A stretch of 13,049 bases of DNA from an uncultured Alphaproteobacteria bacterium (GTDB taxonomy: Bacteria > Pseudomonadota > Alphaproteobacteria > Puniceispirillales > UBA1172), in NCBI GenBank assembly GCA_913056245.1, contig CAJXME010000007.1, forward strand, positions 1-13,049. Direction: 5' to 3'. The position numbers were made by a program, and so were the translations under genes. Shown here piece by piece: positions 1,403 to 10,980 of this stretch (its first letter is position 1; each line of letters starts with the position of its first letter). The notes beneath the pieces were generated by a model. The model was not told the origin of the DNA. It did not search any database and was given only the letters and a program-made list of their open reading frames with translations.

Positions 1403-2167
1403 ATGACTTTACCGCAAACCCCGTCTTTTCGACTTGATGGCAAATCCGCGCTGGTGACGGGCGCGTCTTCGGGGATTGGCGCAGCTTGCGCGGTGGCGCT
1501 GGCGCAAGCTGGGGCGCATGTTTTTGCGGCGGCGCGGCGCGGCGACAAACTCGAAGGTTTGGCCAAGGATGTTCAAGCCGAAGGCGGCAAGATGACGCCT
1601 GTGAGTTTAGACGTCACCGATCACGACGCTATGGCCACATTCATCGAAGCATCAGGGCCTTTTGACATTCTTCTCAATTCAGCGGGCATGGCGCGGCATT
1701 CCCCATCGATGGACACCACGGAAGATGATTTTGACGCGGTGGTCGATATCAATTTGAAATCCGCTTATTTTCTCTCGCAGCGTGTGGCGAAAGGCTTAAT
1801 CAAAGCGGGTAAGCCAGGCTCGATCATCAACATTTCCTCGCAAATGGCGTTGGTGGGGGGGATTGAACGCGCGGTTTATTCCGCCACCAAAGCGGGTGTC
1901 GAAGGCTTCACCCGTGGGATGGCGATTGAATTAGGCCCCCATCAGATTCGCATCAACACGATTTGCCCCACCTTTATTGTCACCGCCCTCACGCAGGCGA
2001 GTTTTGATGATCCCGTCAAACGCGAATGGATCGAAAGCAAAATTAAATTGGGGCGCGTCGGTGAGGTTGAAGACATCATGGGCGCGGCGGTGTTCTTGGC
2101 TTCCGACGCGGCGGCGTTGATCACCGGCACAGCGCTGGTGGTCGATGGCGGCTGGACAGCGGATTAA
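1403..2167 (+). CDS. Classical SDR-family NAD(P)-dependent oxidoreductase
   Basis: The product has 254 residues, the usual length for a classical short-chain dehydrogenase. It carries the cofactor motif TGASSGIG (19-26), the structural NSAG (92-95), and the catalytic set N118, S146, Y159, K163 (YSATK). The C-terminal 'ITGTALVVDGGW' is typical of FabG-like members. The arginines after strand beta-2 (R45, R46) favour NADP(H) over NAD(H). The substrate cannot be told from sequence. The start ATG has AAGGA 7 nt upstream. Its stop overlaps by 4 nt the stop of the convergent dipeptidase gene. It borders the recycling island, but I see no reason to assign it to that pathway. Confidence 0.9.
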   Translation: MTLPQTPSFRLDGKSALVTGASSGIGAACAVALAQAGAHVFAAARRGDKLEGLAKDVQAEGGKMTPVSLDVTDHDAMATFIEASGPFDILLNSAGMARHSPSMDTTEDDFDAVVDINLKSAYFLSQRVAKGLIKAGKPGSIINISSQMALVGGIERAVYSATKAGVEGFTRGMAIELGPHQIRINTICPTFIVTALTQASFDDPVKREWIESKIKLGRVGEVEDIMGAAVFLASDAAALITGTALVVDGGWTAD

Positions 2168-3180
2168 CCGATCTGTTTGGCGATCATATCGAGCCAGTTT
2201 TGACGACAGATTTTAGCGATCAAGGCTTTGCCATAGCCAGCATCGGCCATGGCGGCGGTGAGATTGGGCAATCCCGCGGCGGTGCCAATGGCTTCAGGGA
2301 TAACCGCGCCGTCAAAATCTGAGCCAAGGGCAACGCCATCCTCGCCCAGATGTTCGAGCAAATAATCCAAATGCCTAATCATCACATCAAGCGCGGTGGC
2401 GGCGGTTTTTTCCCCATCCTCGCGCAAAAAGCCTGACGCAAAATTAAGCCCCACCAAGCCGCCCGATTCGGCAATCGCCGCCAGTTGCTGATCGGTTAAA
2501 TTGCGCGGCGAAGGCGATAGCGCATGGATGTTTGAATGCGTCGCGATCAAAGGCCGTGACGTCAGGCTGGCGATGTTCCAAAACCCCGCCTCGTTCAAAT
2601 GCGACAGATCAATCATGATGCCCATCTCATCACAGGCGCGAATAAGGTTTTTACCCGCTTGGGTCAGCCCCGCTCCTTGATCAGGACTGCCGGGGAAATC
2701 AAACGGCACGCCATGGCCAAAAGCGTTGGATCGCGACCACACAGGGCCAATCGACCGCAAGCCTTGGCGATAATAATTCTCGAGATTGCTCAAATCAGGG
2801 GCGATGGCTTCCGCGCCTTCAATATGCAAGACTGCCGCCATGATTCCCGCCGCCATCGCGGCTTCAATCTCTTCTTTGTTATGGCATTGGCGGATGATCT
2901 GAGGATGCTCACGGCATAAGGATTGGAAAATCCCGATCATCGCATCGGTGGCGGATTGCGCATCCGTCATGGTGATGGGGTCAGTGCCGAGGATCGCTTC
3001 GCCCGTGGCGTTTTGTTGCGGGGTGAACATAGCAAAGAAGCCCCCCGTCAATCCGCCGGCCTTGGCTTTGGCGGCGTCGATATGCGTGTCCATGCCCTCA
3101 ATATAGCCTTGGCCGCTTGAATCATTGGCCATCCAAAGCCTGAGCAGGATGTCGTTGTGACCATCAAAGATCAATTCCAT
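2164..3180 (-). CDS. Peptidase family M19 (renal-type) dipeptidase
   Basis: This is a 338-residue metal-dependent dipeptidase with an amidohydrolase-type barrel. The binuclear metal site is complete: H8-x-D10 (DGHND), bridging E121 (LHIEGAEA), H194 (DLSHL), H215 (ATHSN) and the acid in GSDFDG (288-290). Bacterial M19 enzymes cleave dipeptides, often L-D ones. In this neighbourhood L-Ala-D-Glu from murein peptides is a plausible substrate (inference). There is no signal peptide, so it is cytoplasmic, unlike the GPI-anchored mammalian enzyme. I chose ATG 3180 over an in-frame ATG at 3204 because AAGGA sits 7 nt upstream of 3180 and the upstream gene stops 4 nt before it. It forms a two-gene operon with the GH84 gene. 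Confidence 0.92.
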   Translation of the reverse strand: MELIFDGHNDILLRLWMANDSSGQGYIEGMDTHIDAAKAKAGGLTGGFFAMFTPQQNATGEAILGTDPITMTDAQSATDAMIGIFQSLCREHPQIIRQCHNKEEIEAAMAAGIMAAVLHIEGAEAIAPDLSNLENYYRQGLRSIGPVWSRSNAFGHGVPFDFPGSPDQGAGLTQAGKNLIRACDEMGIMIDLSHLNEAGFWNIASLTSRPLIATHSNIHALSPSPRNLTDQQLAAIAESGGLVGLNFASGFLREDGEKTAATALDVMIRHLDYLLEHLGEDGVALGSDFDGAVIPEAIGTAAGLPNLTAAMADAGYGKALIAKICRQNWLDMIAKQIG

Positions 3181-3184
3181 GAGC

Positions 3185-4372
3185 TTATCCTTTCGGTGAG
3201 GCAAGATGCTTCAGATGCGGCGCCAATAAAGGCGGGGCGGTTTTGGCAATGCGGCGGCGGGTCATGCGGTGAAGCGAAAGCAGGATATCTTGGCGCATCC
3301 CCATCAAAAACGGATACCACTCGCGCTGCAAAGGTGATTTCCATCGCCAGAGCAAGGCATCCAAAGCATTCAGCAAAGCCTCCCCTTGTTCCGGTGGCAA
3401 GGGCGATGGCCATGGCGCGGCCTCATTTTCTGGAAAAGGTGGTCCCCAAAACGCTAGCGCGACATCGAAAAAGGCATCAGGAACGCCCTCATCGCTTAAG
3501 ACACGTCGCCATTGGTTTTCATCGCCTCCCCCTTGGGTGAGCGATAACAGCATCATGTCGGTTTCCAGCAATCCCGTGGGGTTGAGCATGATCGCTTGGC
3601 CATCATGACGGCCGCGATAAGGGCCTAAAAACAAACGCCGTGGGCAATAATCATGGGCATAGAGATTATCCCAGATGATCAGCAGATCTTCGGTCATCCC
3701 CGCCTTGACGATTTTTGTGTCCAGAAGGGCGGTATCGGCGGCGACAATATGATGCCCGCAGGTGAAGACCTTAATCGCCTGATCGAGATGCTGGACGAGA
3801 TGCGGCAGATAAAGCCCATCGTCTTCAATATTATCGGCGTAAACCCGAGGCGTCAGGCTAAGAGGCGCGTCGAGATCACGGCCAAGGGTATTGGCCAAGG
3901 CGGTATGCGCTTCACCGTCATGGTGAAACTCCCCCGCATGGCCGGGAAAGCCCGGGTCGATATCATCCATCAAAAGGCCGATTTCATCAGCGCCATCAGC
4001 GAGCAATTGCTGGGCTTTATTCAAGAGAAGGGTGTAATCGCCCCCGTCACCACTTCCGCCATCGCTCAAGTGATTGGACAGGCTTGAGAAGTCAAAATCC
4101 AGCCCCGGCGCGATCCCAGCGATCACGCGAATGCCTTTATCCTTGGCATAAGCGGTGAAGGCGCGAAACAATTGCCGCCAGTCATCGTCATAGGCTTGCC
4201 GCCATTGAAACCGATGATAGGGGTCTTCTTTCGGCGCGTAGAAATAAGCGGTCATGCCAAGATGAGCCAAATGGTCGATCAGCCGATGGCGATCTTGCCA
4301 CGACAACAGGCGGCCATAATAGCCTTCGATATAGCCGTGATGCGATGGCGAAACAGGTTTGATCTTGGTCAT
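3185..4372 (-). CDS. GH84-family beta-N-acetylglucosaminidase (O-GlcNAcase-like)
   Basis: The 395-residue product is a GH84 (NAGidase) catalytic barrel. Seen: GYIEGYYGR (13-21), YAPKEDPYHR (45-54) with the substrate-binding Lys, and WR.AYDDDW (57-65). The catalytic Asp pair is D136-D137 in LLMDDID, and WDNLYAHDY (234-242) and LNP (263-265) correspond to sugar-contacting loops of O-GlcNAcases. GH84 enzymes use substrate-assisted catalysis via the 2-acetamido group and release terminal beta-GlcNAc. There is no signal peptide and no accessory module, so a secreted hyaluronidase or mucinase is unlikely. Among recycling genes, cleavage of GlcNAc-anhydroMurNAc in place of NagZ is the attractive role (inference). 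The ribosome site is weak (AAGG). The gene is divergent from the PIG-L gene and followed after 4 nt by the dipeptidase gene. Confidence 0.88.
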   Translation of the reverse strand: MTKIKPVSPSHHGYIEGYYGRLLSWQDRHRLIDHLAHLGMTAYFYAPKEDPYHRFQWRQAYDDDWRQLFRAFTAYAKDKGIRVIAGIAPGLDFDFSSLSNHLSDGGSGDGGDYTLLLNKAQQLLADGADEIGLLMDDIDPGFPGHAGEFHHDGEAHTALANTLGRDLDAPLSLTPRVYADNIEDDGLYLPHLVQHLDQAIKVFTCGHHIVAADTALLDTKIVKAGMTEDLLIIWDNLYAHDYCPRRLFLGPYRGRHDGQAIMLNPTGLLETDMMLLSLTQGGGDENQWRRVLSDEGVPDAFFDVALAFWGPPFPENEAAPWPSPLPPEQGEALLNALDALLWRWKSPLQREWYPFLMGMRQDILLSLHRMTRRRIAKTAPPLLAPHLKHLASPKG

Positions 4373-4396
4373 TTCAGGCCTTTTGATTATGCTGAT

Positions 4397-4425
4397 ATTA
4401 AACCGTATTTGGGAAAGGATTTGAA
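4397..4425 (-). promoter_or_regulatory. Candidate promoter of the GH84-dipeptidase operon
   Basis: Read leftward, TTCAAA (4420-4425) and TTTAAT (4397-4402) are separated by 17 nt; matches to consensus are four and five of six. It sits in the 54-nt gap between the divergent GH84 and PIG-L genes, 25 nt before the GH84 start codon. An overlapping alternative -10, CATAAT, lies slightly downstream. Confidence 0.4.
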
Positions 4426-4426
4426 G

Positions 4427-5119
4427 GTGTTAAATATCACAGCCATTGGCGCCCATCCTGATGATCTTGAAATCTTTATGTATGGTTGCTTGGCGGCCAT
4501 GAAAGCCCGTGGCGATCGCCTGACGTTGATTGTCGCCACCGATGGCGCCAAAGGCGGAAGCGAGCCGGGGCCTGCCCTTGCCGCCCAGCGCGCCGAAGAA
4601 ACCCAAAAAGGCTTGGCGGATTTGGGCAAGCCGCAATTGTTGGGCTTGCCTGATGGGGCATTGGTGATGGCGCCAGATGCAAGGCAAGTGATCACGGAAG
4701 CCATCAACGCCAGTCAACCTGATGTGATCATCACCCATGGCCCTGAAGATTATCACCCGGATCACCGCGCTTTGGCGCATTATGTCCAAGACGCGGCGGG
4801 GTTCCGATGCCCTATTCTGATTGCCGATACCTTGATGGGCGTCGGGTTTCAGCCGGAATTTTATGTCGATATCACGCCTCATATGGTCGCCAAAGAAAAA
4901 GCCATCATGGCGCATACCAGTCAAATGCCGCATCGCTTTACCGATGCCGCGCGTATCACCAATCGCTTCCGCGCCGCTCAATGCAATGCCCCTGATGGAC
5001 ATTACGCCGAAGCCTATCGGCTGGAACGGCGGTTTCCCTTCACCGATATTCGCTGTTTATTGCCAGACGCGCCGCCTTATCGGCCGTTTTATGTGCCGGA
5101 TTCCGATGCGTTGATCTAA
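4427..5119 (+). CDS. PIG-L (LmbE)-family zinc deacetylase, GTG start
   Basis: The 230-residue product is a PIG-L/LmbE-family metal-dependent N-deacetylase. The zinc and catalytic motif AHPDD (9-13, followed by LE) and the second motif YHPDHR (109-114) are both intact. Known members remove acetyl groups from GlcNAc-containing molecules (GlcNAc-PI, the mycothiol and bacillithiol precursors, chito-oligosaccharides). Divergent placement from a GlcNAc-releasing GH84 enzyme suggests a GlcNAc or muropeptide-sugar substrate (inference). The frame is open upstream, but that part is antisense to GH84. I chose GTG 4427 because AAAGGA ends 7 nt upstream and AHPDD then falls at the family's usual distance from the N-terminus; TTG 4421 is too close to that site. 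Confidence 0.88.
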   Translation: MLNITAIGAHPDDLEIFMYGCLAAMKARGDRLTLIVATDGAKGGSEPGPALAAQRAEETQKGLADLGKPQLLGLPDGALVMAPDARQVITEAINASQPDVIITHGPEDYHPDHRALAHYVQDAAGFRCPILIADTLMGVGFQPEFYVDITPHMVAKEKAIMAHTSQMPHRFTDAARITNRFRAAQCNAPDGHYAEAYRLERRFPFTDIRCLLPDAPPYRPFYVPDSDALI

Positions 5120-5160
5120 AGGGCTGATCGAAACAACGGATCAAAACAATGAAGCGGCGG

Positions 5161-6273
5161 TTATTTGAGCCGCGGCATCAGCATGTCGCCGCCGGTCATG
5201 GGCGTGTCAACGCCAGTGGTTTGTGGAAACGTGATCGGCAATCCGCGTTCATGCCGCGCCGCCAAGACCGCCATCAATTCGGCTTCGGTAAAGCGGCTGT
5301 CGAGGCCGTGATCATCAAGACGGGAGACGGCGGTTTTGCTGTAGGATTGAATCATCGCCATTAAAGTGGGATTCAAACTGCCGCCGCCGCTGACCACCAC
5401 ATGATGAAATTCGCACGACAGATTGACATCTAAACTCGCCGCGATGCTGGCCGCGGTTAAGGCGGTGAGGCTGGCGATTTGGTTGGGCGTGCTATGATGG
5501 TCTAAAGCCGAAAGATCAATCCAATCGTAAAGCGCCATGCGATCCAGCGATTTGATCCCCCGCTGGTGAAAGAACGGGTGCTGAAGGCAAGCCGCCACAA
5601 AGGCCTGATCCACCTGCCCCTTTGCGGCCATTTGCCCGCCTTCATCAAAAGCCTTTCCTGTGAGCCTTGCCATGGCATCGTCGATCAACGCGTTGCCAGG
5701 CCCCGAATCATAGCCGATCAAATCTCGGCCATCCCAAAGGGTGACGTTGCTGATGCCGCCGATATTGACCATCGCCGCGGGCAGGTTAAGGCCAAGGTCA
5801 GATAGAATCATCTGGTGATAAATCGGCGCGAGCGGCGCGCCTTGCCCTCCCGCCGCAAGATCGGCTTGCCGAAATTGATGCACCACCGGCACCCCGATGC
5901 GATCCGCCAGATATTGCGCATCGCCAATCTGAAGGCTGACGCCTTGATCGGGGTTATGAAAAATAGTCTGCCCATGAAACCCAATGCGATCAGGCTGAAT
6001 GCCGCTGGTGATCATTAAGCGTTCCACCGCATGGGCATGATCGCGGGCGATCCGCATCGGCAGGTCATCGGGTATCTCATGGGGGTTTTGATAGGCGGCA
6101 AAAATCGCCGCCCGGGTTTGGGGGTGATAGGCAAAAGTATCCGCCGCGCCGCGCCGAGTGACGCGCTCGCCATCGGTATAGACCAAGGCCGCGTCAATAC
6201 CATCGACGCTGGTGCCAGCCATCAAGCCAATGATCGCCCAATCACCTCGCTGATCCTTTGGGGCATCCTCCAT
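5161..6273 (-). CDS. anmK: Anhydro-N-acetylmuramic acid kinase
   Basis: AnmK opens the 1,6-anhydro ring of anhydroMurNAc and phosphorylates it with ATP to MurNAc-6-phosphate, the substrate of MurQ. Motifs seen: GLMAGTSVDGID (16-27) for ATP, GFHGQT (98-103), FRQADLAAGGQGAPL (134-148) containing the catalytic Asp (D138), NIGGISN (170-176), DSGPGN (189-194), VSGGGSLNP (294-302), and a C-terminal E..LMAVLA. I start it at 6273, giving 370 residues, almost exactly E. coli AnmK length. AAGGA lies 7 nt upstream of this ATG, whereas the in-frame ATG at 6309 lacks a ribosome site and overlaps the -10 box of the candidate promoter. It is divergent from murQ, its next pathway step. Confidence 0.96.
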   Translation of the reverse strand: MEDAPKDQRGDWAIIGLMAGTSVDGIDAALVYTDGERVTRRGAADTFAYHPQTRAAIFAAYQNPHEIPDDLPMRIARDHAHAVERLMITSGIQPDRIGFHGQTIFHNPDQGVSLQIGDAQYLADRIGVPVVHQFRQADLAAGGQGAPLAPIYHQMILSDLGLNLPAAMVNIGGISNVTLWDGRDLIGYDSGPGNALIDDAMARLTGKAFDEGGQMAAKGQVDQAFVAACLQHPFFHQRGIKSLDRMALYDWIDLSALDHHSTPNQIASLTALTAASIAASLDVNLSCEFHHVVVSGGGSLNPTLMAMIQSYSKTAVSRLDDHGLDSRFTEAELMAVLAARHERGLPITFPQTTGVDTPMTGGDMLMPRLK

Positions 6274-6307
6274 CTTGGCGTCCTTATCTTTCCATCGCGG
6301 TTGATCC

Positions 6308-6336
6308 ATTGTATCGTCAGGTATGACCGATCACAA
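6308..6336 (-). promoter_or_regulatory. Candidate anmK promoter overlapping the murQ start
   Basis: Read leftward, TTGTGA (6331-6336) and TACAAT (6308-6313) are 17 nt apart, with four and five of six matches. Transcription would start near 6301, about 28 nt before the chosen anmK ATG. The -35 box lies within murQ codons 3-5 and the spacer spans the murQ start codon, so transcription of the two divergent genes may interfere. Confidence 0.5.
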
Positions 6337-7069
6337 TTCAACCACGGAATCGCAACCCCATGAAAGCCGCTGGCTTGATCGCCTCAGCAATGAGGCGGCG
6401 CTGGCCATTATGGCGGAAGATCAAGAAATTGCCGCCGCCGCCGTCAAAGCCGCGCTTGGTGAGATTGAGGCCGCCGCTGAGGCCATTGCCGCTCGTCTTG
6501 AAGGTGAGCCGCAAAGCCGATTGTTTTATGCTGGGGCGGGAACGTCGATTCGCATCGGTGTTCAGGATGGGGTGGAATTGACCCCCACTTTCGATTGGCC
6601 GGAAGATCGCTTGGGTTTTATCATCGCCGGGGGTGAGGCCGCGCTCATGCGGTCGGTGGAAAACGCTGAAGATAATGCTGAGGCCGCGCGTCAAGACGTT
6701 ATGGCCAAGGTCAATGCGGCGGATGTGCTGATCGGCTTGGCGGCGTCAGGTTCAACCCCCTTTACCTGCGCGGCGGTGGACGCGGCTAAGGCCAAAGGCG
6801 CGCTGACCATCGGCATCGCCAATAACGCCCAATCGCCGCTTGTGGCGAAGGCTGATTTTGGCATCACTTTATTGACCGGCGCCGAATCGGTGGCGGGGTC
6901 AACGCGGATGAAAGCCGGCACGGCGCAAAAGATTTGCCTGAATTTGATCTCAACCTTGGTGATGGTGCGGCTTGGGCGAGTCAAGCAAGGGGTGATGGCG
7001 TCGATGCGCCCCACCAACGCGAAATTACGCCAACGCCAAGAACAGATTGACGCGATCCTCAACCGTTAA
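6323..7069 (+). CDS. murQ: N-acetylmuramic acid 6-phosphate etherase, short form
   Basis: MurQ cleaves the D-lactyl ether of MurNAc-6-P to give GlcNAc-6-P and D-lactate in the cytoplasm. The SIS sugar-phosphate domain is present: GAGTS (71-75), both catalytic acids at the family spacing (E85 and E116, 31 residues apart as in E. coli E83/E114), IAGGE (101-105), GLAASGSTPF (138-147) and STRMKAGTAQK (193-203). With 248 residues it is about 50 shorter than E. coli MurQ (298) and lacks the C-terminal small helical domain. Active-site-proximal changes are GAGTSIR for GAGTSGR and DGVE for DASE. The start ATG has only a weak AGG nearby. The stop overlaps by 4 nt the stop of the convergent YkuD gene. 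An alternative is a MurQ-like SIS enzyme of altered specificity, though the anmK pairing favours MurQ. Confidence 0.88.
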   Translation: MTDHNSTTESQPHESRWLDRLSNEAALAIMAEDQEIAAAAVKAALGEIEAAAEAIAARLEGEPQSRLFYAGAGTSIRIGVQDGVELTPTFDWPEDRLGFIIAGGEAALMRSVENAEDNAEAARQDVMAKVNAADVLIGLAASGSTPFTCAAVDAAKAKGALTIGIANNAQSPLVAKADFGITLLTGAESVAGSTRMKAGTAQKICLNLISTLVMVRLGRVKQGVMASMRPTNAKLRQRQEQIDAILNR

Positions 7070-7602
7070 TCGCGGGTGATCACCATCGTGGTCTCTTTCG
7101 TAAGACGCGGCAATATCGCCATCATGGCGTCAAGGGCAATCGCGACACAGCCTTCCGTGACGTCACGCCCTTCATGCAGCAGATGAAAGAAAATCGCGCT
7201 GCCCCTTCCCGCGATTGGCGGGTCATCGTTGTAGCCCAAAGGGATCACCAGATCATAAGCGTGATCGTCGCGCCATAACACTTCATGGGACGCGTCAAAC
7301 GGCAGGCTCACCACTTGGTTGTATTGCGGGTGATCGGGATCATCACACCACCCCATGTCTTCGGTGATGGCAATACAGTCTAGAGCAAGAGGAGGTGGGG
7401 CAAGAGGCGGCAGGGTCAGGCGATCGGCGCGATAATAAATCTGGCGGAGCGGCCATAGCCCCAAGGGGGTTTTGCCATCGCCTTCTTTTTTAGCTGAAGC
7501 CTCTACCACCCCATGGCGGCCGAAACCAGCCTTGACCGTCATGCCATCAAAGGCGACAATACCATTATCAGTTTGGAGGATTGCTTTTATTTCAGAGGCC
7601 AT
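7066..7602 (-). CDS. YkuD-domain protein without signal peptide, likely L,D-carboxypeptidase
   Basis: The 178-residue product is almost entirely one YkuD (L,D-transpeptidase fold) domain. The active-site motif is FFH140 LLHEGRDVTEG C152 VAI, supplying the His and the nucleophilic Cys; GDGKTPLG (41-48) is also typical. Classical L,D-transpeptidases are exported, but this protein starts MASEIKAILQ with no signal peptide or membrane helix. Cytoplasmic YkuD proteins are known as murein-recycling L,D-carboxypeptidases that remove the terminal D-Ala of tetrapeptides (Acinetobacter ElsL), replacing LdcA. The recycling context supports that role here (inference). No clear Shine-Dalgarno is seen before ATG 7602. 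It is convergent with murQ and divergent from ampG. Confidence 0.85.
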   Translation of the reverse strand: MASEIKAILQTDNGIVAFDGMTVKAGFGRHGVVEASAKKEGDGKTPLGLWPLRQIYYRADRLTLPPLAPPPLALDCIAITEDMGWCDDPDHPQYNQVVSLPFDASHEVLWRDDHAYDLVIPLGYNDDPPIAGRGSAIFFHLLHEGRDVTEGCVAIALDAMMAILPRLTKETTMVITRD

Positions 7603-7690
7603 GGTTCATTTGTTTCAGTGTTTGAAAGGCCGCGCTCCAACAGCCTTTGATCCAAAGGGGGATGCACTGGTTCTAAGATTTATCATGACC

Positions 7691-7719
7691 ATTATCTGTT
7701 GTCTTGACGAAAGGATCAA
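7691..7719 (-). promoter_or_regulatory. Candidate promoter of the YkuD gene
   Basis: Read leftward, TTGATC (7714-7719) and GATAAT (7691-7696) are separated by 17 nt, with four and five of six matches to consensus. The expected start near 7684 gives a leader of about 80 nt. The -35 overlaps the ribosome-binding region of divergent ampG, so the two genes may affect each other. I found no equally good rightward promoter for ampG in this 119-nt gap. Confidence 0.5.
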
Positions 7720-7721
7720 TC

Positions 7722-9047
7722 ATGGATCTTAGTTCTATTCTCCGCGGGTATCATGACCGCCGGATGTTCCGCATTTTGCTGATTGGGATGATCAGCGGTT
7801 TTCCTTGGGTGTTGATTGGCTCAGCCTTGACCTTATGGTTGCGCGAAGATGGCCTCAGCCGCACGGCGGTGGGTTTCGCCGGTCTGATTTTTAGTGTTTA
7901 TGCCATTAACTTTCTCTGGGCGCCGCTCATCGATCGCATCAAAGTGCCAGTCTTGAGCAATATCTTAGGCCACCGCAAAGCTTGGATCGTGATCTTTCAA
8001 GCGGTGATTATAGTGGCCTTGTTCCTTTGGTCGCAATTAACCCCAAGCCAAGACCTGACCATGATTGTCGGCATTGCCTTGATGATCGCGATCGTCTCAG
8101 CCTCGCAAGATATAATGCTTGATGCGTTCCGCATTGAACAAGTGCGCGCCAATGAAACCGCGAGCATGACCGCTGGCGCGGCGGTGACGGTGATCGGTTG
8201 GATGACGGGCTTCAAACTCGGCGGCTTCGTCCTATTGATGGTGTCTGATGCTTTTGAAGCGGCGGGGGATGCGCTTTACTGGCAAAACAGTTTTATCGTC
8301 ATGATTGGGTTGATGCTGGTGATGAATATCGGCTTGGTCTTGATTCCAGAAAACGCCCCTGAAAAGCAAAATCCTGTGCCGAGCGATGATCCCATGAAAG
8401 CCGTTTTCATTTGGATTAAAGACACGGTCATCACACCGCTGACTGGGTTTTTCGTCGCCAATGGATTCAAGATTGGCCTTGCGATTTTTGCCTTTGTTTT
8501 TCTCTTTAAGATCGGCGAAGCCTTCATGGGCAAAATGTCGATTGTTTTTTACAAAGAAATCGGCTTCAGCAAATCTGATATCGCGCTTTATTCCAAAGGG
8601 CTGGGCTGGATCACCACGGTGATTTTTACCTTGATTGGGGGATTGGTGGCGATGCGCTTTGGCTCCGTCAAGGCCTTGCTCTTAGCTGGGATTGCCATGG
8701 CGTCGACCAATATTCTGTTCTCGATTCTCTCTTGGGTGGGGCCAACGGAGTGGCTGTTTGCGCTGGCGGTTGTGCTGGATGACTTAGCGGGCGCTTTCGC
8801 GAATGTGGCCTTTGTCGCGTTCATTTCGCTCTTGGTGGATCGCCGCTACACCGCCACCCAATACGCGCTTCTGGCTTCGATTGGCACGGCGGGGCGGACG
8901 TTCTTTGCGTCGTCCTCCGGTTGGCTGGTGGATAGTCTCGGCGGCGATTGGGGGGTGTTTTTCATCATCACCGCGGCCATGGTCATTCCATCGCTGTTGC
9001 TGTTGTGGAAGTTGGGGCCAATCCTGACCGCCAAAACGAAAACTTAA
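7722..9047 (+). CDS. ampG: AmpG-family muropeptide permease (MFS)
   Basis: AmpG is the inner-membrane, proton-motive-force-driven importer of GlcNAc-1,6-anhydroMurNAc and its peptides. The 441-residue product is hydrophobic throughout, with about 12 predicted membrane segments; the first spans roughly residues 16-40 (GFPWVLIG). Family signatures are FLWAPLIDR (64-72), SASQDIMLDAFRIE (126-139) and VAFVAFISLLVDRRYTATQ (362-380), all characteristic of AmpG rather than of other MFS carriers. E. coli AmpG is longer (491) because of extra helices. I start at ATG 7722, with AAAGGA 6 nt upstream, rather than an in-frame TTG at 7704. The stop TAA directly abuts the stop of the convergent NlpC/P60 gene. 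Confidence 0.93.
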   Translation: MDLSSILRGYHDRRMFRILLIGMISGFPWVLIGSALTLWLREDGLSRTAVGFAGLIFSVYAINFLWAPLIDRIKVPVLSNILGHRKAWIVIFQAVIIVALFLWSQLTPSQDLTMIVGIALMIAIVSASQDIMLDAFRIEQVRANETASMTAGAAVTVIGWMTGFKLGGFVLLMVSDAFEAAGDALYWQNSFIVMIGLMLVMNIGLVLIPENAPEKQNPVPSDDPMKAVFIWIKDTVITPLTGFFVANGFKIGLAIFAFVFLFKIGEAFMGKMSIVFYKEIGFSKSDIALYSKGLGWITTVIFTLIGGLVAMRFGSVKALLLAGIAMASTNILFSILSWVGPTEWLFALAVVLDDLAGAFANVAFVAFISLLVDRRYTATQYALLASIGTAGRTFFASSSGWLVDSLGGDWGVFFIITAAMVIPSLLLLWKLGPILTAKTKT

Positions 9048-9800
9048 TTAAGGACGCGCTAATCGTGTGATCGGTCCCGCCACGCTTTCAAGGCGCGGCA
9101 GGGCTGATCGCAACGACTCAATGGCGGTCATGGCGTGGTGCATATTGGCGTGAAGCAATCTATCCGCATCCGCCATGATGCCGACATGACCTTTCCAAAA
9201 GACCAGATCGCCGCGCCGCAATTCGTCGATATCCGATAGCGTCGTGCCGATGGTTTTTTCCTGATCGCCGGAATTCCGCATCACCGCGACGCCGCTGGCG
9301 GCAAGGGATAATTGCACCAGCGCTGAGCAGTCAAAGCCGATGCTGTCACGTCCGCCCCAACGATAGGGGGTGCCGATCAACCCTTCCGCCACCGCGACAT
9401 AATCATCTTCATAAACCCCAAGCGGCAAAGCGTGGCGGGTGGGGATATGCCCTATGATGCCATGAGGGCCGGTGACCGCGATGGTCTCGCCATTCATCTC
9501 ACCATGGATCAGGCCACCAAGGGGAATATAGCCTGAAGCCGGGGATTTGATGTCTGGCGATGCCGTCAACAACGCCCTTGGCGCGATGATATGATGGGTC
9601 GGCGGCGGCAAATCCCCCAGCGCGGTCTTGCGGATAAAGCCTTCATAGCCATCGGTTTCAAGCCTGATCTCTGCCCAATCGCCATGATCGGCCAGCATGC
9701 GGACGGCTTCGCCAAAAAGCGCGTCGGTTTCGCGGCCAGCCCCATCATCAGGCGCGGCCATGATCGGCGTCGATGGCGTGATGATGCGTTGATCGCTCAT
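9048..9800 (-). CDS. NlpC/P60 cysteine peptidase with SH3b domains, likely cytoplasmic
   Basis: The 250-residue product has an N-terminal bacterial SH3 domain (about 10-65), a second SH3-like segment (about 70-122) and a C-terminal NlpC/P60 domain (about 130-225). The catalytic Cys is C158 in FDCSALVQ, the His is H205 in GHVGIM, and H217 (LLHAN) is the third polar residue. NlpC/P60 enzymes of this layout (YkfC type) hydrolyse the gamma-D-Glu-mDAP bond of murein peptides. There is no signal peptide, so action on imported peptides is likely (inference). I start at ATG 9800: GAGG lies 6 nt upstream and its ATGA overlaps the TGA stop of the amidase gene, indicating translational coupling. An in-frame ATG at 9824 lies inside the amidase gene. 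Confidence 0.9.
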   Translation of the reverse strand: MSDQRIITPSTPIMAAPDDGAGRETDALFGEAVRMLADHGDWAEIRLETDGYEGFIRKTALGDLPPPTHHIIAPRALLTASPDIKSPASGYIPLGGLIHGEMNGETIAVTGPHGIIGHIPTRHALPLGVYEDDYVAVAEGLIGTPYRWGGRDSIGFDCSALVQLSLAASGVAVMRNSGDQEKTIGTTLSDIDELRRGDLVFWKGHVGIMADADRLLHANMHHAMTAIESLRSALPRLESVAGPITRLARP

Positions 9801-10213
9801 GCGATGCCTCGCGATATCGCCCAAGCCCCCGCATCAAAATTAGGGCAGGTTTTTTCGGTGTTATCAAAATCGCAATGGCCGCGGATTTCAGCCTTGGGGT
9901 GACGCGCTTTCCAGTCGCGCAGAACCTGATCAAGCGCTTGCATTTGAGCATCGGTGAATTGCGATCGGCCAATCAAGCAGACGCCAAGGCTTTCGTGATT
10001 ATGTTCATAGACATGAGCGCCGATCCAATAATCAGGGCGGCCATGTTCAATCGTGCCGTCACGGTTGATGATCCGGTGATACCCCACCCCATCCCAGCCG
10101 AAACCAAGATGCATTTTATGCAAATCAAGGGCGGTCAAGTTTTCATCGTCAGGGGTGTCGGCGCAATGCACCACCAAATAACGGATGGCATTGGCATCAA
10201 GATAGTTCGTCAT
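9797..10213 (-). CDS. T7-lysozyme-like N-acetylmuramoyl-L-alanine amidase
   Basis: The 138-residue product is a single zinc amidase domain (Amidase_2/PGRP fold) that cuts the MurNAc-L-Ala bond. It resembles phage T7 lysozyme more than E. coli AmpD: ligands H16 (VVHCADT), H113 (GHCDFD) and C123 (KTCPNFD), with Y45 (VGYHRII) and K121 as catalytic helpers. T7 lysozyme has H17, Y46, H122, K128 and C130, the same Lys-x-Cys spacing. AmpD instead uses His, His, Asp. There is no signal peptide, so a cytoplasmic AmpD-like recycling role is plausible (inference), as is a domesticated phage endolysin origin. The start ATG has GAGGG 6 nt upstream. It is the first gene of an overlapping pair with NlpC/P60. 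Confidence 0.9.
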   Translation of the reverse strand: MTNYLDANAIRYLVVHCADTPDDENLTALDLHKMHLGFGWDGVGYHRIINRDGTIEHGRPDYWIGAHVYEHNHESLGVCLIGRSQFTDAQMQALDQVLRDWKARHPKAEIRGHCDFDNTEKTCPNFDAGAWAISRGIA

Positions 10214-10226
10214 GTTCAGCCCTCAA

Positions 10227-10271
10227 AGGCTTGCCAGCAAAGATTCAATATGGTCATCTTGCCACAAGCCT
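10227..10271. repeat. Small repeats in the amidase/HAD divergent gap
   Basis: AGGCTTG (10227-10233) and CAAGCCT (10265-10271) are exact inverted repeats 31 nt apart, and CTTGCCA occurs twice (10230-10236, 10258-10264). They occupy most of the 83-nt gap between two divergent genes, so they could be an operator. Repeats this short may also be chance, and no convincing promoter was found here for either gene. Confidence 0.2.
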
Positions 10272-10296
10272 GACGATTTGCCGATAGGGATTTGCC

Positions 10297-10980
10297 ATGA
10301 TGTTTCCGCCCACTGGTTTGCCGCGCGCCGTTCTAAGCGATATGGATGGTGTTTTGCTCGATACGGAAACCCTGTCGAAGATCACTTTCTATGCCTTGAT
10401 GGAATCCCGCGGCTTTGATCAAGCGGACGCTATTTTCCCGCAATTGGTGGGGCGGAATAAAGCCGCGCATTATGAGATTTTTCGCCGTGACTTGCCCCAA
10501 GGATTGGACGTGATGGGTTTTGCCGATGAATGGATGGCGCGGTATTTGGCGATGTTGGTTGAAAATGTGCCGGTCAAAGACGGCGCCATGGCGCTGCTGA
10601 AACGCATGAAGACGCATGATATTCCCGTCTTGGTGGTGACGTCTTCGGCGACGGATAAAGCGGAAATGCTCTTGCAGCGGGCAGGGTTGCGGCCTTTCAT
10701 TGAGCAGGTAATCGGTGGTGATCAAGTGGCCTTAGGCAAGCCCGCGCCGGATATTTACCTGAAAGCCGCCGCGACCCTGCCGCATCCGATTGACCAAATG
10801 CTGGCGATTGAAGATTCCAATTATGGTGTGATGGCGGCGCATCGCGCGGGTGCTGTCACCGTGCAAATCCCAGACCTTGCCCCGCCTAGCGACGAGGTCA
10901 AAGCCCTTAATCCTATTATTTTGAATCATTTGGACGATCTGGCGGATCATTTTAACTGGCCAACAATCCCCCTCTCTTGA
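10297..10980 (+). CDS. HAD-superfamily hydrolase, beta-phosphoglucomutase-like
   Basis: The 227-residue product is a HAD subfamily I phosphatase/mutase with all four motifs: nucleophile D14 and acid D16 in DMDGVLLDTE, TSS (114-116), K147 in LGKPAP, and EDSNYG (171-176). A helical cap lies between about residues 20 and 90. Members act on sugar phosphates or convert beta-glucose-1-P to glucose-6-P. It lies 83 nt from the divergent amidase gene, so dephosphorylation of a recycled amino-sugar phosphate is possible; MupP of pseudomonads, a MurNAc-6-P phosphatase, is a member of this broad class. With murQ present such a role would compete rather than complete, so I leave the substrate open. The start ATG has GGGA 6 nt upstream. 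Confidence 0.85.
   Translation: MMFPPTGLPRAVLSDMDGVLLDTETLSKITFYALMESRGFDQADAIFPQLVGRNKAAHYEIFRRDLPQGLDVMGFADEWMARYLAMLVENVPVKDGAMALLKRMKTHDIPVLVVTSSATDKAEMLLQRAGLRPFIEQVIGGDQVALGKPAPDIYLKAAATLPHPIDQMLAIEDSNYGVMAAHRAGAVTVQIPDLAPPSDEVKALNPIILNHLDDLADHFNWPTIPLS

What the first reader, a model, noticed from the sequence alone, without database searches (positions are those of the whole stretch)
2164..10980. A compact peptidoglycan-recycling island built from alternative enzyme families
AmpG, AnmK and MurQ are recognisable. Around them sit a T7-like amidase, a signal-less YkuD protein, a signal-less NlpC/P60 peptidase, an M19 dipeptidase, a GH84 glycosidase, a PIG-L deacetylase and possibly a HAD phosphatase. 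Together they could take an imported GlcNAc-anhydroMurNAc-tetrapeptide down to amino acids and amino sugars. In E. coli the corresponding genes are scattered and several belong to other families (NagZ GH3, LdcA, MpaA). Every soluble enzyme in the set lacks a signal peptide, which suits cytoplasmic recycling. Such an integrated set, if conserved, would be a distinct recycling system.
Basis: partly seen in the sequence, partly recalled or inferred. Interest (0 to 1): 0.78.

Follow-up and report, generated by a model that had tools for sequence, protein, structure and literature searches.

The report
Marine bacteria's alternative cell-wall recycling island
In a group of ocean bacteria (SAR116), the genes for recycling old cell wall sit together in one conserved cluster in which two standard enzymes appear to have been replaced by unrelated ones: a relative of the human O-GlcNAcase stands in for NagZ, and a PIG-L-type deacetylase stands in for NagA.

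Summary
The cluster is real and conserved. The window comes from an alphaproteobacterial order that includes SAR116. GH84, PIG-L, AnmK, MurQ, YkuD, AmpG, an NlpC/P60 peptidase and a T7-lysozyme-type amidase recur together across it. Of 59 fetched regions with GH84, 49 hold at least 5 of 8 partners; three flanking genes recur in 5-6.
NagZ's family GH3 is in 2 of 136 genomes of the order and 0 of 43 good ones, against 271 of 314 good genomes of a class sample. S66 LdcA is in 0 of 136. GH84 and AnmK occur in nearly the same genomes (80 both, 5 and 5 alone, 46 neither).
New here: among 90 genomes with GH84 or AnmK, 69 have the island PIG-L, 12 have NagA, none has both, 9 have neither. PIG-L therefore probably replaces NagA.
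The same GH84 clade lies near ampG in Gammaproteobacteria (Granulosicoccaceae, 11 of 11 loci).
The leaderless YkuD model is closest to L,D-carboxypeptidases, in line with the known ElsL.
No activity is demonstrated. Not searched genome-wide: ampD, mpl, ROK-type nagK. The HAD gene is not core.

The parts
2164..3204 (-). M19 dipeptidase (ATG probably at 3180); candidate L-Ala-D-Glu dipeptidase
   Evidence: PF01244 306 bits; best PDB match 3fdg 1e-98; at the locus in 22 of 59 regions
3185..4372 (-). GH84 beta-N-acetylglucosaminidase, candidate NagZ replacement
   Evidence: PF07555 146 bits; profile matches human O-GlcNAcase 5uhk E 3e-49; D136-D137 and other positions aligned with the O-GlcNAcase active site invariant in 19 rows
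4430..5119 (+). PIG-L/LmbE-type deacetylase, candidate NagA replacement (start estimated)
   Evidence: PF02585; H9, D11, D12, R54, H109, D111, H112 invariant in 21 rows; model closest to diacetylchitobiose deacetylases
5161..6309 (-). AnmK, anhydro-MurNAc kinase
   Evidence: NF007141 378.8 bits, cut-off 352
6323..7069 (+). MurQ, MurNAc-6-phosphate etherase, short form (248 aa)
   Evidence: NF003915 286.5 bits, cut-off 168; the Glu of 'ASECPPTF' and of 'VEGAED' in 4lzj are kept (their catalytic role is recalled)
7066..7602 (-). leaderless YkuD protein, candidate cytoplasmic L,D-carboxypeptidase
7704..9047 (+). AmpG muropeptide permease
   Evidence: TIGR00901 372 bits, cut-off 350
9048..9824 (-). 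SH3_16 + NlpC/P60 peptidase, dipeptidyl-peptidase VI-like
   Evidence: PF00877, PF18348; PDB 8er5 1.5e-13, 3h41 2.6e-10, 3pvq (dipeptidyl-peptidase VI) 4.9e-9
9797..10213 (-). T7-lysozyme-type Amidase_2, candidate AmpD counterpart
   Evidence: PF01510; 1aro E 2e-23, AmpD 1j3g E 5e-4; one long frame with the NlpC part in 13 genomes (both domains confirmed by Pfam in one of them, L060)
10297..10980 (+). HAD-family phosphatase; neighbour, not core
   Evidence: PF13419; MupP model 39.9 bits against cut-off 359; present in 18 of 59 regions

Best explanation
This is a conserved cytoplasmic peptidoglycan-recycling island of an alphaproteobacterial order that includes SAR116 (Puniceispirillales). Proposed route: AmpG imports GlcNAc-anhydroMurNAc-peptides. 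GH84, not NagZ, removes GlcNAc. The T7-type amidase frees the peptide. The YkuD protein trims tetra- to tripeptide. The NlpC/P60 protein cuts the D-Glu/diaminopimelate bond, and where present M19 splits the remaining L,D-dipeptide. AnmK and MurQ turn anhydroMurNAc into GlcNAc-6-phosphate. The PIG-L enzyme, not NagA, removes the acetyl group from GlcNAc-6-phosphate and/or GlcNAc. Shown: gene identity, conserved active-site residues, conserved clustering, absence of GH3 and of S66 LdcA, and mutual exclusion of PIG-L and NagA. Inferred: every substrate and reaction.
For: Clustering: 49 of 59 GH84 regions hold at least 5 of 8 partners (gene orders). PIG-L lies between GH84 and AnmK in 46 of 46 regions that hold it. 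Co-occurrence of GH84 and AnmK: 80/5/5/46 in 136 genomes. GH3 in 0 of 43 good genomes of the order against 271 of 314 in the class sample; S66 LdcA 0 of 136. PIG-L 69, NagA 12, both 0, neither 9 among 90 genomes with GH84 or AnmK. NagA or a piece of it lies on one contig with AnmK within about 3 kb in G084, G109, G122, G126, G129, G130, G131 and G132 (positions). A BadF-type kinase over cut-off is in 8 of 15 NagA genomes and 1 of 121 others. Amidase and NlpC form one long frame in 13 genomes, as expected of successive steps. The GH84 clade of the island recurs near ampG in Granulosicoccaceae, 11 of 11 loci, in one clade with SAR116 (SH-aLRT 99); of those 11 genomes 7 have no GH3 and the GH3 proteins of the other 4 stay under the NagZ cut-off. 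Active sites are conserved. YkuD and PIG-L models.
Against: No biochemical test. Four genomes at least 96% complete (G001, G008, G010, G011) have GH84 but neither the island PIG-L nor NagA, so the deacetylation step can be lost or done otherwise. 46 of 136 genomes have neither GH84 nor AnmK. On the AnmK tree the PIG-L/NagA exchange needs only two changes, and in six of the nine NagA rows AnmK was exchanged too, so independence is limited; the Fisher values ignore relatedness. No GlcNAc kinase was identified in PIG-L genomes other than a weak BadF match in the window's own (only BadF was tested; ROK was not). YkuD is missing from four regions of the window's own family that hold AmpG (L046, L048, L049, L050). 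In Granulosicoccaceae no YkuD or PIG-L lies in the fetched flanks, and missing the NagZ cut-off is weak evidence for the three GH3 proteins scoring 145-156 bits against 207; the completeness of these genomes is not told. Other GH84 lineages (33 of 33 loci L192-L224) show none of the other nine island profiles nearby, so GH84 as a family does not imply peptidoglycan recycling. YkuD-to-ElsL orthology was not tested.
Confidence: 0.75

Rival explanations
1. The cluster does recycle peptidoglycan, but PIG-L is not a NagA counterpart: it deacetylates something else, for example a sugar conjugate as BshB does, or free GlcNAc only, with MurQ's GlcNAc-6-phosphate handled by an unknown enzyme.
For: PIG-L-family enzymes act on varied GlcNAc derivatives (PMC4101496, passages). 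NCBIfam's nearest model is BshB1, 82 bits against a cut-off of 182.5. The nearest structures are diacetylchitobiose deacetylases. BadF kinases go with NagA and, with one exception, not with PIG-L, which would fit a route through free GlcN. Four near-complete genomes have neither deacetylase.
Against: Position between GH84 and AnmK in 46 of 46 regions with PIG-L; strict exclusion with NagA (69/12/0/9); no island PIG-L in any of the 46 genomes lacking both GH84 and AnmK.
Confidence: 0.3
2. GH84 here is a scavenging or glycoprotein-directed glucosaminidase (chitobiose, O-GlcNAc) that merely sits among recycling genes; GlcNAc-anhydroMurNAc is split by another enzyme.
For: Solved GH84 enzymes are named O-GlcNAcases, hyaluronidases and glucosaminidases. 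SAR86 and Fibrobacterota GH84 genes show no island partners nearby. One other alphaproteobacterial GH84 (L130/G404) lies by MurQ, AmpG and AnmK in a genome that also has GH3, so GH84 and GH3 can coexist.
Against: GH3 absent; GH84 and AnmK co-occur; second occurrence near ampG in another class; no signal peptide apparent.
Confidence: 0.15
3. The YkuD protein is an L,D-transpeptidase or has another activity and is not the L,D-carboxypeptidase of the pathway.
Against: No leader apparent; the two best structural matches are carboxypeptidases; S66 LdcA absent; ElsL precedent (PMC8649774, passages).
Confidence: 0.2
4. The neighbourhood is ordinary shared ancestry of a chromosome segment without functional meaning.
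For: Most genomes examined belong to one order, so gene order can simply be inherited.
Against: Flanking genes L21, SDR and GPx recur in 6, 5 and 5 of 59 regions against 39-56 for AnmK, AmpG, MurQ, YkuD, PIG-L, amidase and NlpC. The order is rearranged in family f3 but most of the set stays together. Recurrence of part of the set in Gammaproteobacteria.
Confidence: 0.04

Closest known systems
E. coli recycling pathway (AmpG, NagZ, AmpD, LdcA, AnmK, MurQ, NagK, NagA, MpaA/Mpl)
   Same: AmpG import and the AnmK-MurQ route to GlcNAc-6-phosphate
   Different: GH84 in place of GH3 NagZ; PIG-L in place of NagA; YkuD in place of S66 LdcA; T7-type amidase in place of AmpD; NlpC/P60 in place of MpaA; genes clustered. 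The scattering of the E. coli genes and MpaA are recalled, not tested.
Caulobacter crescentus recycling (PMC13046382; abstract, sections 5 and 8, part 1 of section 3, passages)
   Same: Alphaproteobacterial AmpG, AnmK and an Amidase_2 enzyme; no LdcA
   Different: Caulobacter has NagZ, NagK, two NagA and the MurU shunt, and no MurQ
ElsL of Acinetobacter baumannii (PMC8649774; passages and section 12)
   Same: Leaderless YkuD-domain protein acting as (here: proposed as) recycling L,D-carboxypeptidase
   Different: Orthology not tested here; ElsL orthologues were reported mainly in Gamma- and Betaproteobacteria (624 and 101 of 788 hits)
YkfC / dipeptidyl-peptidase VI (the name YkfC is recalled)
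   Same: SH3_16 + NlpC/P60 without apparent leader; PDB 3h41 and 3pvq match
   Different: Here adjacent to, or in one frame with, a T7-type amidase
GH84 O-GlcNAcase / NagJ
   Same: Catalytic domain and active-site residues
   Different: Short protein without apparent signal peptide inside a recycling cluster
Diacetylchitobiose deacetylase / BshB1 (LmbE-like)
   Same: Fold and catalytic residues
   Different: Genomic setting; substrate unknown; BshB1 model scores below cut-off

Membership tests
GH84 | PF07555 over gathering score | tested here: met
   146.2 bits against 25
GH84 | catalytic Asp-Asp pair and the WDN..DY segment (their role is recalled) | tested here: met
   D136, D137, W234, D235, N236, D241, Y242 invariant in 19 rows
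NagZ (GH3) | GH3 catalytic domain PF00933 | tested here: not met
   the protein matches PF07555 only; no GH3 found in the genome
NagZ (GH3) | cleaves GlcNAc-anhydroMurNAc | not testable with these tools
   needs enzyme assay
PIG-L/LmbE-like deacetylases | metal ligands His, Asp, His and general base Asp | tested here: met
   H9, D12, H112 and D11 invariant in 21 rows, matched by eye to BshB residues given in PMC4101496 (passages)
NagA (amidohydrolase) | amidohydrolase fold / TIGR00221 | tested here: not met
   window PIG-L matches PF02585 and no amidohydrolase family; own genome has no NagA over cut-off
BshB1 | TIGR04001 over cut-off | tested here: not met
   82.1 bits against 182.5
AmpG | TIGR00901 over cut-off | tested here: met
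   372 bits against 350
AnmK | NCBIfam equivalog over cut-off | tested here: met
   NF007141 378.8 against 352
MurQ | NCBIfam subfamily model over cut-off and catalytic Glu | tested here: met
   NF003915 286.5 against 168; Glu kept
MurQ | NCBIfam equivalog TIGR00274 over cut-off | tested here: not met
   214.5 against 302; the C-terminal part of the model is not matched
LdcA (S66) | PF02016 gene in the order | tested here: not met
   0 of 136 genomes; 6 of 14 control genomes ring
ElsL class | leaderless YkuD domain with conserved His and Cys | tested here: met
   (leader judged by hydropathy only)
ElsL class | orthology to ElsL | not tested
   the ElsL sequence was not at hand
ElsL class | L,D-carboxypeptidase activity on disaccharide-tetrapeptide | not testable with these tools
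   structure neighbours only
AmpD | NF008758 over cut-off | tested here: not met
   23.3 bits against 143; T7 lysozyme is far closer
YkfC / dipeptidyl-peptidase VI | SH3_16 + NlpC/P60 domains | tested here: met
MupP | NF009696 over cut-off (HAD gene) | tested here: not met
   39.9 bits against 359

The most novel reading that the evidence does not exclude
Two core steps of peptidoglycan recycling have been taken over by unrelated folds in a marine order: GH84 (the O-GlcNAcase family) is the cytoplasmic GlcNAc-anhydroMurNAc glucosaminidase in place of NagZ, and a PIG-L-family deacetylase is the GlcNAc-6-phosphate (or GlcNAc) deacetylase in place of NagA. The recycling GH84 has also crossed between Alpha- and Gammaproteobacteria, where it again sits near ampG.
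Probability: 0.6. Interest if true: 0.78.

Novelty: new variant of a known kind. Interest (0 to 1): 0.68.

Why it matters
It predicts isofunctional replacements for NagZ (a target of inhibitors meant to restore beta-lactam action; PMC3920638, listing and abstract start only) and for NagA, and it gives a testable function to an O-GlcNAcase-family gene and to a PIG-L gene that public records name only generically. Pathway surveys that look only for nagZ, ldcA and nagA would wrongly score these bacteria as unable to recycle their wall.

Tried and rejected
An apparent M19-GH84 fusion in G002 (L047, 687-aa frame, Pfam domains) was dropped: the two parts are joined across a run of undetermined bases. 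The 21 long amidase-NlpC frames contain no undetermined residues (they come from 13 genomes, some fetched twice).

The HAD gene as a MupP-like or otherwise integral phosphatase was rejected (18 of 59 regions). The AmpD filing of the amidase was rejected in favour of T7-type.

GH84 as a general peptidoglycan marker was rejected: 33 of 33 loci L192-L224 (SAR86, Fibrobacterota and others) show none of the other nine island profiles; their flanks are at most 8 kb. Of the six GH84 genomes of the class sample outside the order, five were examined for context and one (L130) has MurQ, AmpG and AnmK nearby; the sixth (L118, 3.3 kb contig) was not examined.

Two GH3 hits in the order: in G109 (L043) a 256-aa NagZ-like piece (NF003740 144.8 bits against 207) beside scpAB-like frames, in a genome with 7% contamination; in G132 (L044) a piece nearer to xylosidases (NagZ model 35 bits) in a frame that also holds a TIGR00730 protein and an ABC-ATPase piece, so perhaps a mis-assembly (in one search I had sent the wrong strand of L044, and sent the right one). 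Neither genome is among the 43 good ones.

PIG-L counts: 72 of 136 genomes have a match to profile A1; I dropped three (G023, G062, G102) whose only matches are 63 bits or less. The 59 GH84 regions were chosen by hand from 85 GH84 genomes, with long contigs preferred; regions cut by contig ends lower the counts. G130 and G132 carry NagA pieces under the cut-off (99 and 129 bits) and were counted with NagA. The GH84 tree rows were also picked by hand: 26 SAR116 rows, 11 Granulosicoccaceae, 21 SAR86 and related, 6 Fibrobacterota, 5 other Alphaproteobacteria, 6 others. Both trees are quick ones without bootstrap.

Literature searches on GH84 or PIG-L in recycling and on SAR116 listed no paper whose title or abstract start describes either role; only the top 6 to 20 rows of each were seen. 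Two SAR116 papers have no occurrence of 'peptidoglycan' in the held main text (PMC12262181, PMC8547437).
Full report
WHAT IS THERE. The window (G000:C7, 13,049 bases, of a 1.74 Mb, 377-contig genome at 88.85% completeness) carries, from 2164 to 10980, M19, GH84, PIG-L, AnmK, MurQ, YkuD, AmpG, SH3_16-NlpC/P60, Amidase_2 and HAD genes. Strands alternate, so this is a cluster of several transcription units and not one operon. GH84 and M19 follow each other closely, and the amidase and NlpC frames overlap. Left of it lie an L21-like gene, tRNA-Ser and an SDR; right of it GPx, a class II aldolase-like gene and another SDR. The family names of these flanks are my reading of the sequence; only the tRNA has a call.

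WHERE IT COMES FROM. A same-genus genome (G003) has a contig of the same length as JAGWAQ010000007.1 (Alphaproteobacteria bacterium), and contigs of G084 and G104 have the lengths of records named SAR116 cluster bacterium and Candidatus Puniceispirillum sp.. G001 (2,704,644 bases) and G094 (2,592,803 bases) have the lengths given for the cultured SAR116 isolates LSUCC0684 and LSUCC0396 (PMC12262181, passages). These identifications are inferred from length alone.

CONSERVED CLUSTER. I fetched 60 regions from 59 genomes and annotated them with profiles built from the window's proteins. Of the 59 regions with GH84, AnmK is in 56, AmpG in 52, MurQ in 49, YkuD in 48, PIG-L in 46, amidase in 39, NlpC in 39, M19 in 22 and HAD in 18. 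The window's flanking genes L21, SDR1 and GPx are in 6, 5 and 5. In one family (f3) the order is rearranged, with AmpG-YkuD on one side and GH84-PIG-L-AnmK and usually MurQ on the other, yet the set stays within 20 kb. Wherever PIG-L is present in these regions it lies between GH84 and AnmK (46 of 46). Amidase and NlpC are one open reading frame of 393-435 aa in 12 of the 60 regions and in one further genome, G107; Pfam confirms both domains in the one that was scanned, L060.

NAGZ AND LDCA ARE MISSING. GH84 is in 85 of 136 genomes of the order (31 of 43 good ones), in 12 of 12 of the family, in 11 of 385 of a class sample of which 5 belong to this order, and in 0 of 14 control genomes. GH3 is in 0 of 43 good and 2 of 136 genomes of the order, in 320 of 385 (271 of 314 good) of the class sample, and was not found in the window's genome. 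S66 LdcA is in 0 of 136. AnmK is in 85 of 136. GH84 and AnmK together: 80 both, 5 GH84 only, 5 AnmK only, 46 neither. These counts ignore relatedness.

PIG-L AND NAGA EXCLUDE EACH OTHER. NagA over its cut-off is in 13 of 136 genomes, with pieces in two more. The island PIG-L is in 69 of 136 (three weak matches dropped). Among the 90 genomes with GH84 or AnmK: PIG-L 69, NagA 12, both 0, neither 9. Five of the nine are 57-76% complete; four (G001, G008, G010, G011) are 96% complete or more and are true exceptions. In G084, G109, G122, G126, G129, G130, G131 and G132 the NagA gene or piece lies on the same contig as AnmK within about 3 kb; in G084 the row reads AnmK, MurQ, BadF-type kinase, NagA. 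A BadF-type kinase over the Pfam cut-off occurs in 8 of the 15 NagA genomes and in 1 of 121 others, which is the window's own genome with a weaker match. The two of those eight that were scanned are nearest to the NagK_SO3507 model, at 134 bits against a cut-off of 370. On the AnmK tree (61 rows) NagA needs two changes of state; six NagA rows share a separate AnmK branch, so there AnmK was probably exchanged along with NagA, while G078-G080 kept the island AnmK.

A SECOND, DISTANT OCCURRENCE. In 11 of 11 Granulosicoccaceae loci (Gammaproteobacteria) AmpG lies within the fetched flank, with NlpC in 9, amidase in 7, AnmK in 4, MurQ in 3 and M19 in 2, and no YkuD or PIG-L. Their GH84 genes form one clade with those of SAR116 (37 rows, SH-aLRT 99) and are intermixed with them, which suggests horizontal transfer. 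Of those 11 genomes, 7 have no GH3. Three have GH3 proteins with lipoprotein-like N-termini by eye, scoring 145-156 bits against the NagZ cut-off of 207, and one has a xylosidase-like GH3. In contrast, 33 of 33 other loci (L192-L224) have none of the other nine island profiles.

MECHANISM. The route in the best explanation follows from the known chemistry of each family (recalled) plus the neighbourhood evidence above. GH84 uses the substrate's own N-acetyl group (recalled), so deacetylation must follow GH84, which puts PIG-L where NagA acts. Whether PIG-L takes GlcNAc-6-phosphate, GlcNAc or both is open. MurQ should make GlcNAc-6-phosphate in PIG-L genomes, which favours the phosphorylated sugar; the scarcity of the BadF kinase there favours free GlcNAc. 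Deleting both nagA genes was not possible in Caulobacter (PMC13046382, section 8), so some outlet for GlcNAc-6-phosphate is expected; the four exceptions above are therefore puzzling.

NOVELTY. The kind (AmpG-based recycling) is known and the YkuD step has a known precedent. The use of GH84 and PIG-L is, as far as the rows seen show, undescribed in the held library; most subscription papers are not in it. I rate it a new variant of a known kind.

Noticed in passing
window 6323-7069 and L045-L104: The island MurQ is about 50 aa shorter at the C-terminus than the NCBIfam models (248 aa in the window; 243-262 in most of the fetched frames), whereas the three Granulosicoccaceae copies are 304-308 aa.
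   Followed up: partly
G001/L051, G008/L053, G010/L137, G011/L050: GH84 islands without PIG-L in genomes where NagA was not found either; in L051 the rest of the window's gene order, flanks included, is kept and GH84 and AnmK simply abut.
   Followed up: partly
L130 (G404): A different GH84 lineage next to MurQ, AmpG and AnmK in an alphaproteobacterial genome that also has GH3 genes.
   Followed up: no
L197-L220: GH84 genes in SAR86-cluster and related genomes without recycling genes nearby; their role is unknown.
   Followed up: no
L050 (G011): AmpG at the locus is a divergent copy (31-32% identity in pieces) in the opposite orientation, and YkuD is missing there.
   Followed up: no
L141, 6100-7314: A malate/L-lactate dehydrogenase-family gene (PF02615) next to NagA in G131; possibly related to the lactate released by MurQ.
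   Followed up: no
L225, 5487-6407 (G000 C51): The window's own genome carries a divergent BadF-type kinase weakly like NagK_SO3507 (50 bits against a cut-off of 370), over the Pfam cut-off unlike its family relatives.
   Followed up: partly
L043 (G109): A NagZ-like fragment beside scpAB-like frames (my reading of the frames) in a genome with 7% contamination; possibly foreign sequence.
   Followed up: no
L044 (G132): One frame holds a TIGR00730 protein, a GH3 piece and an ABC-ATPase piece, which looks like a mis-assembly.
   Followed up: no
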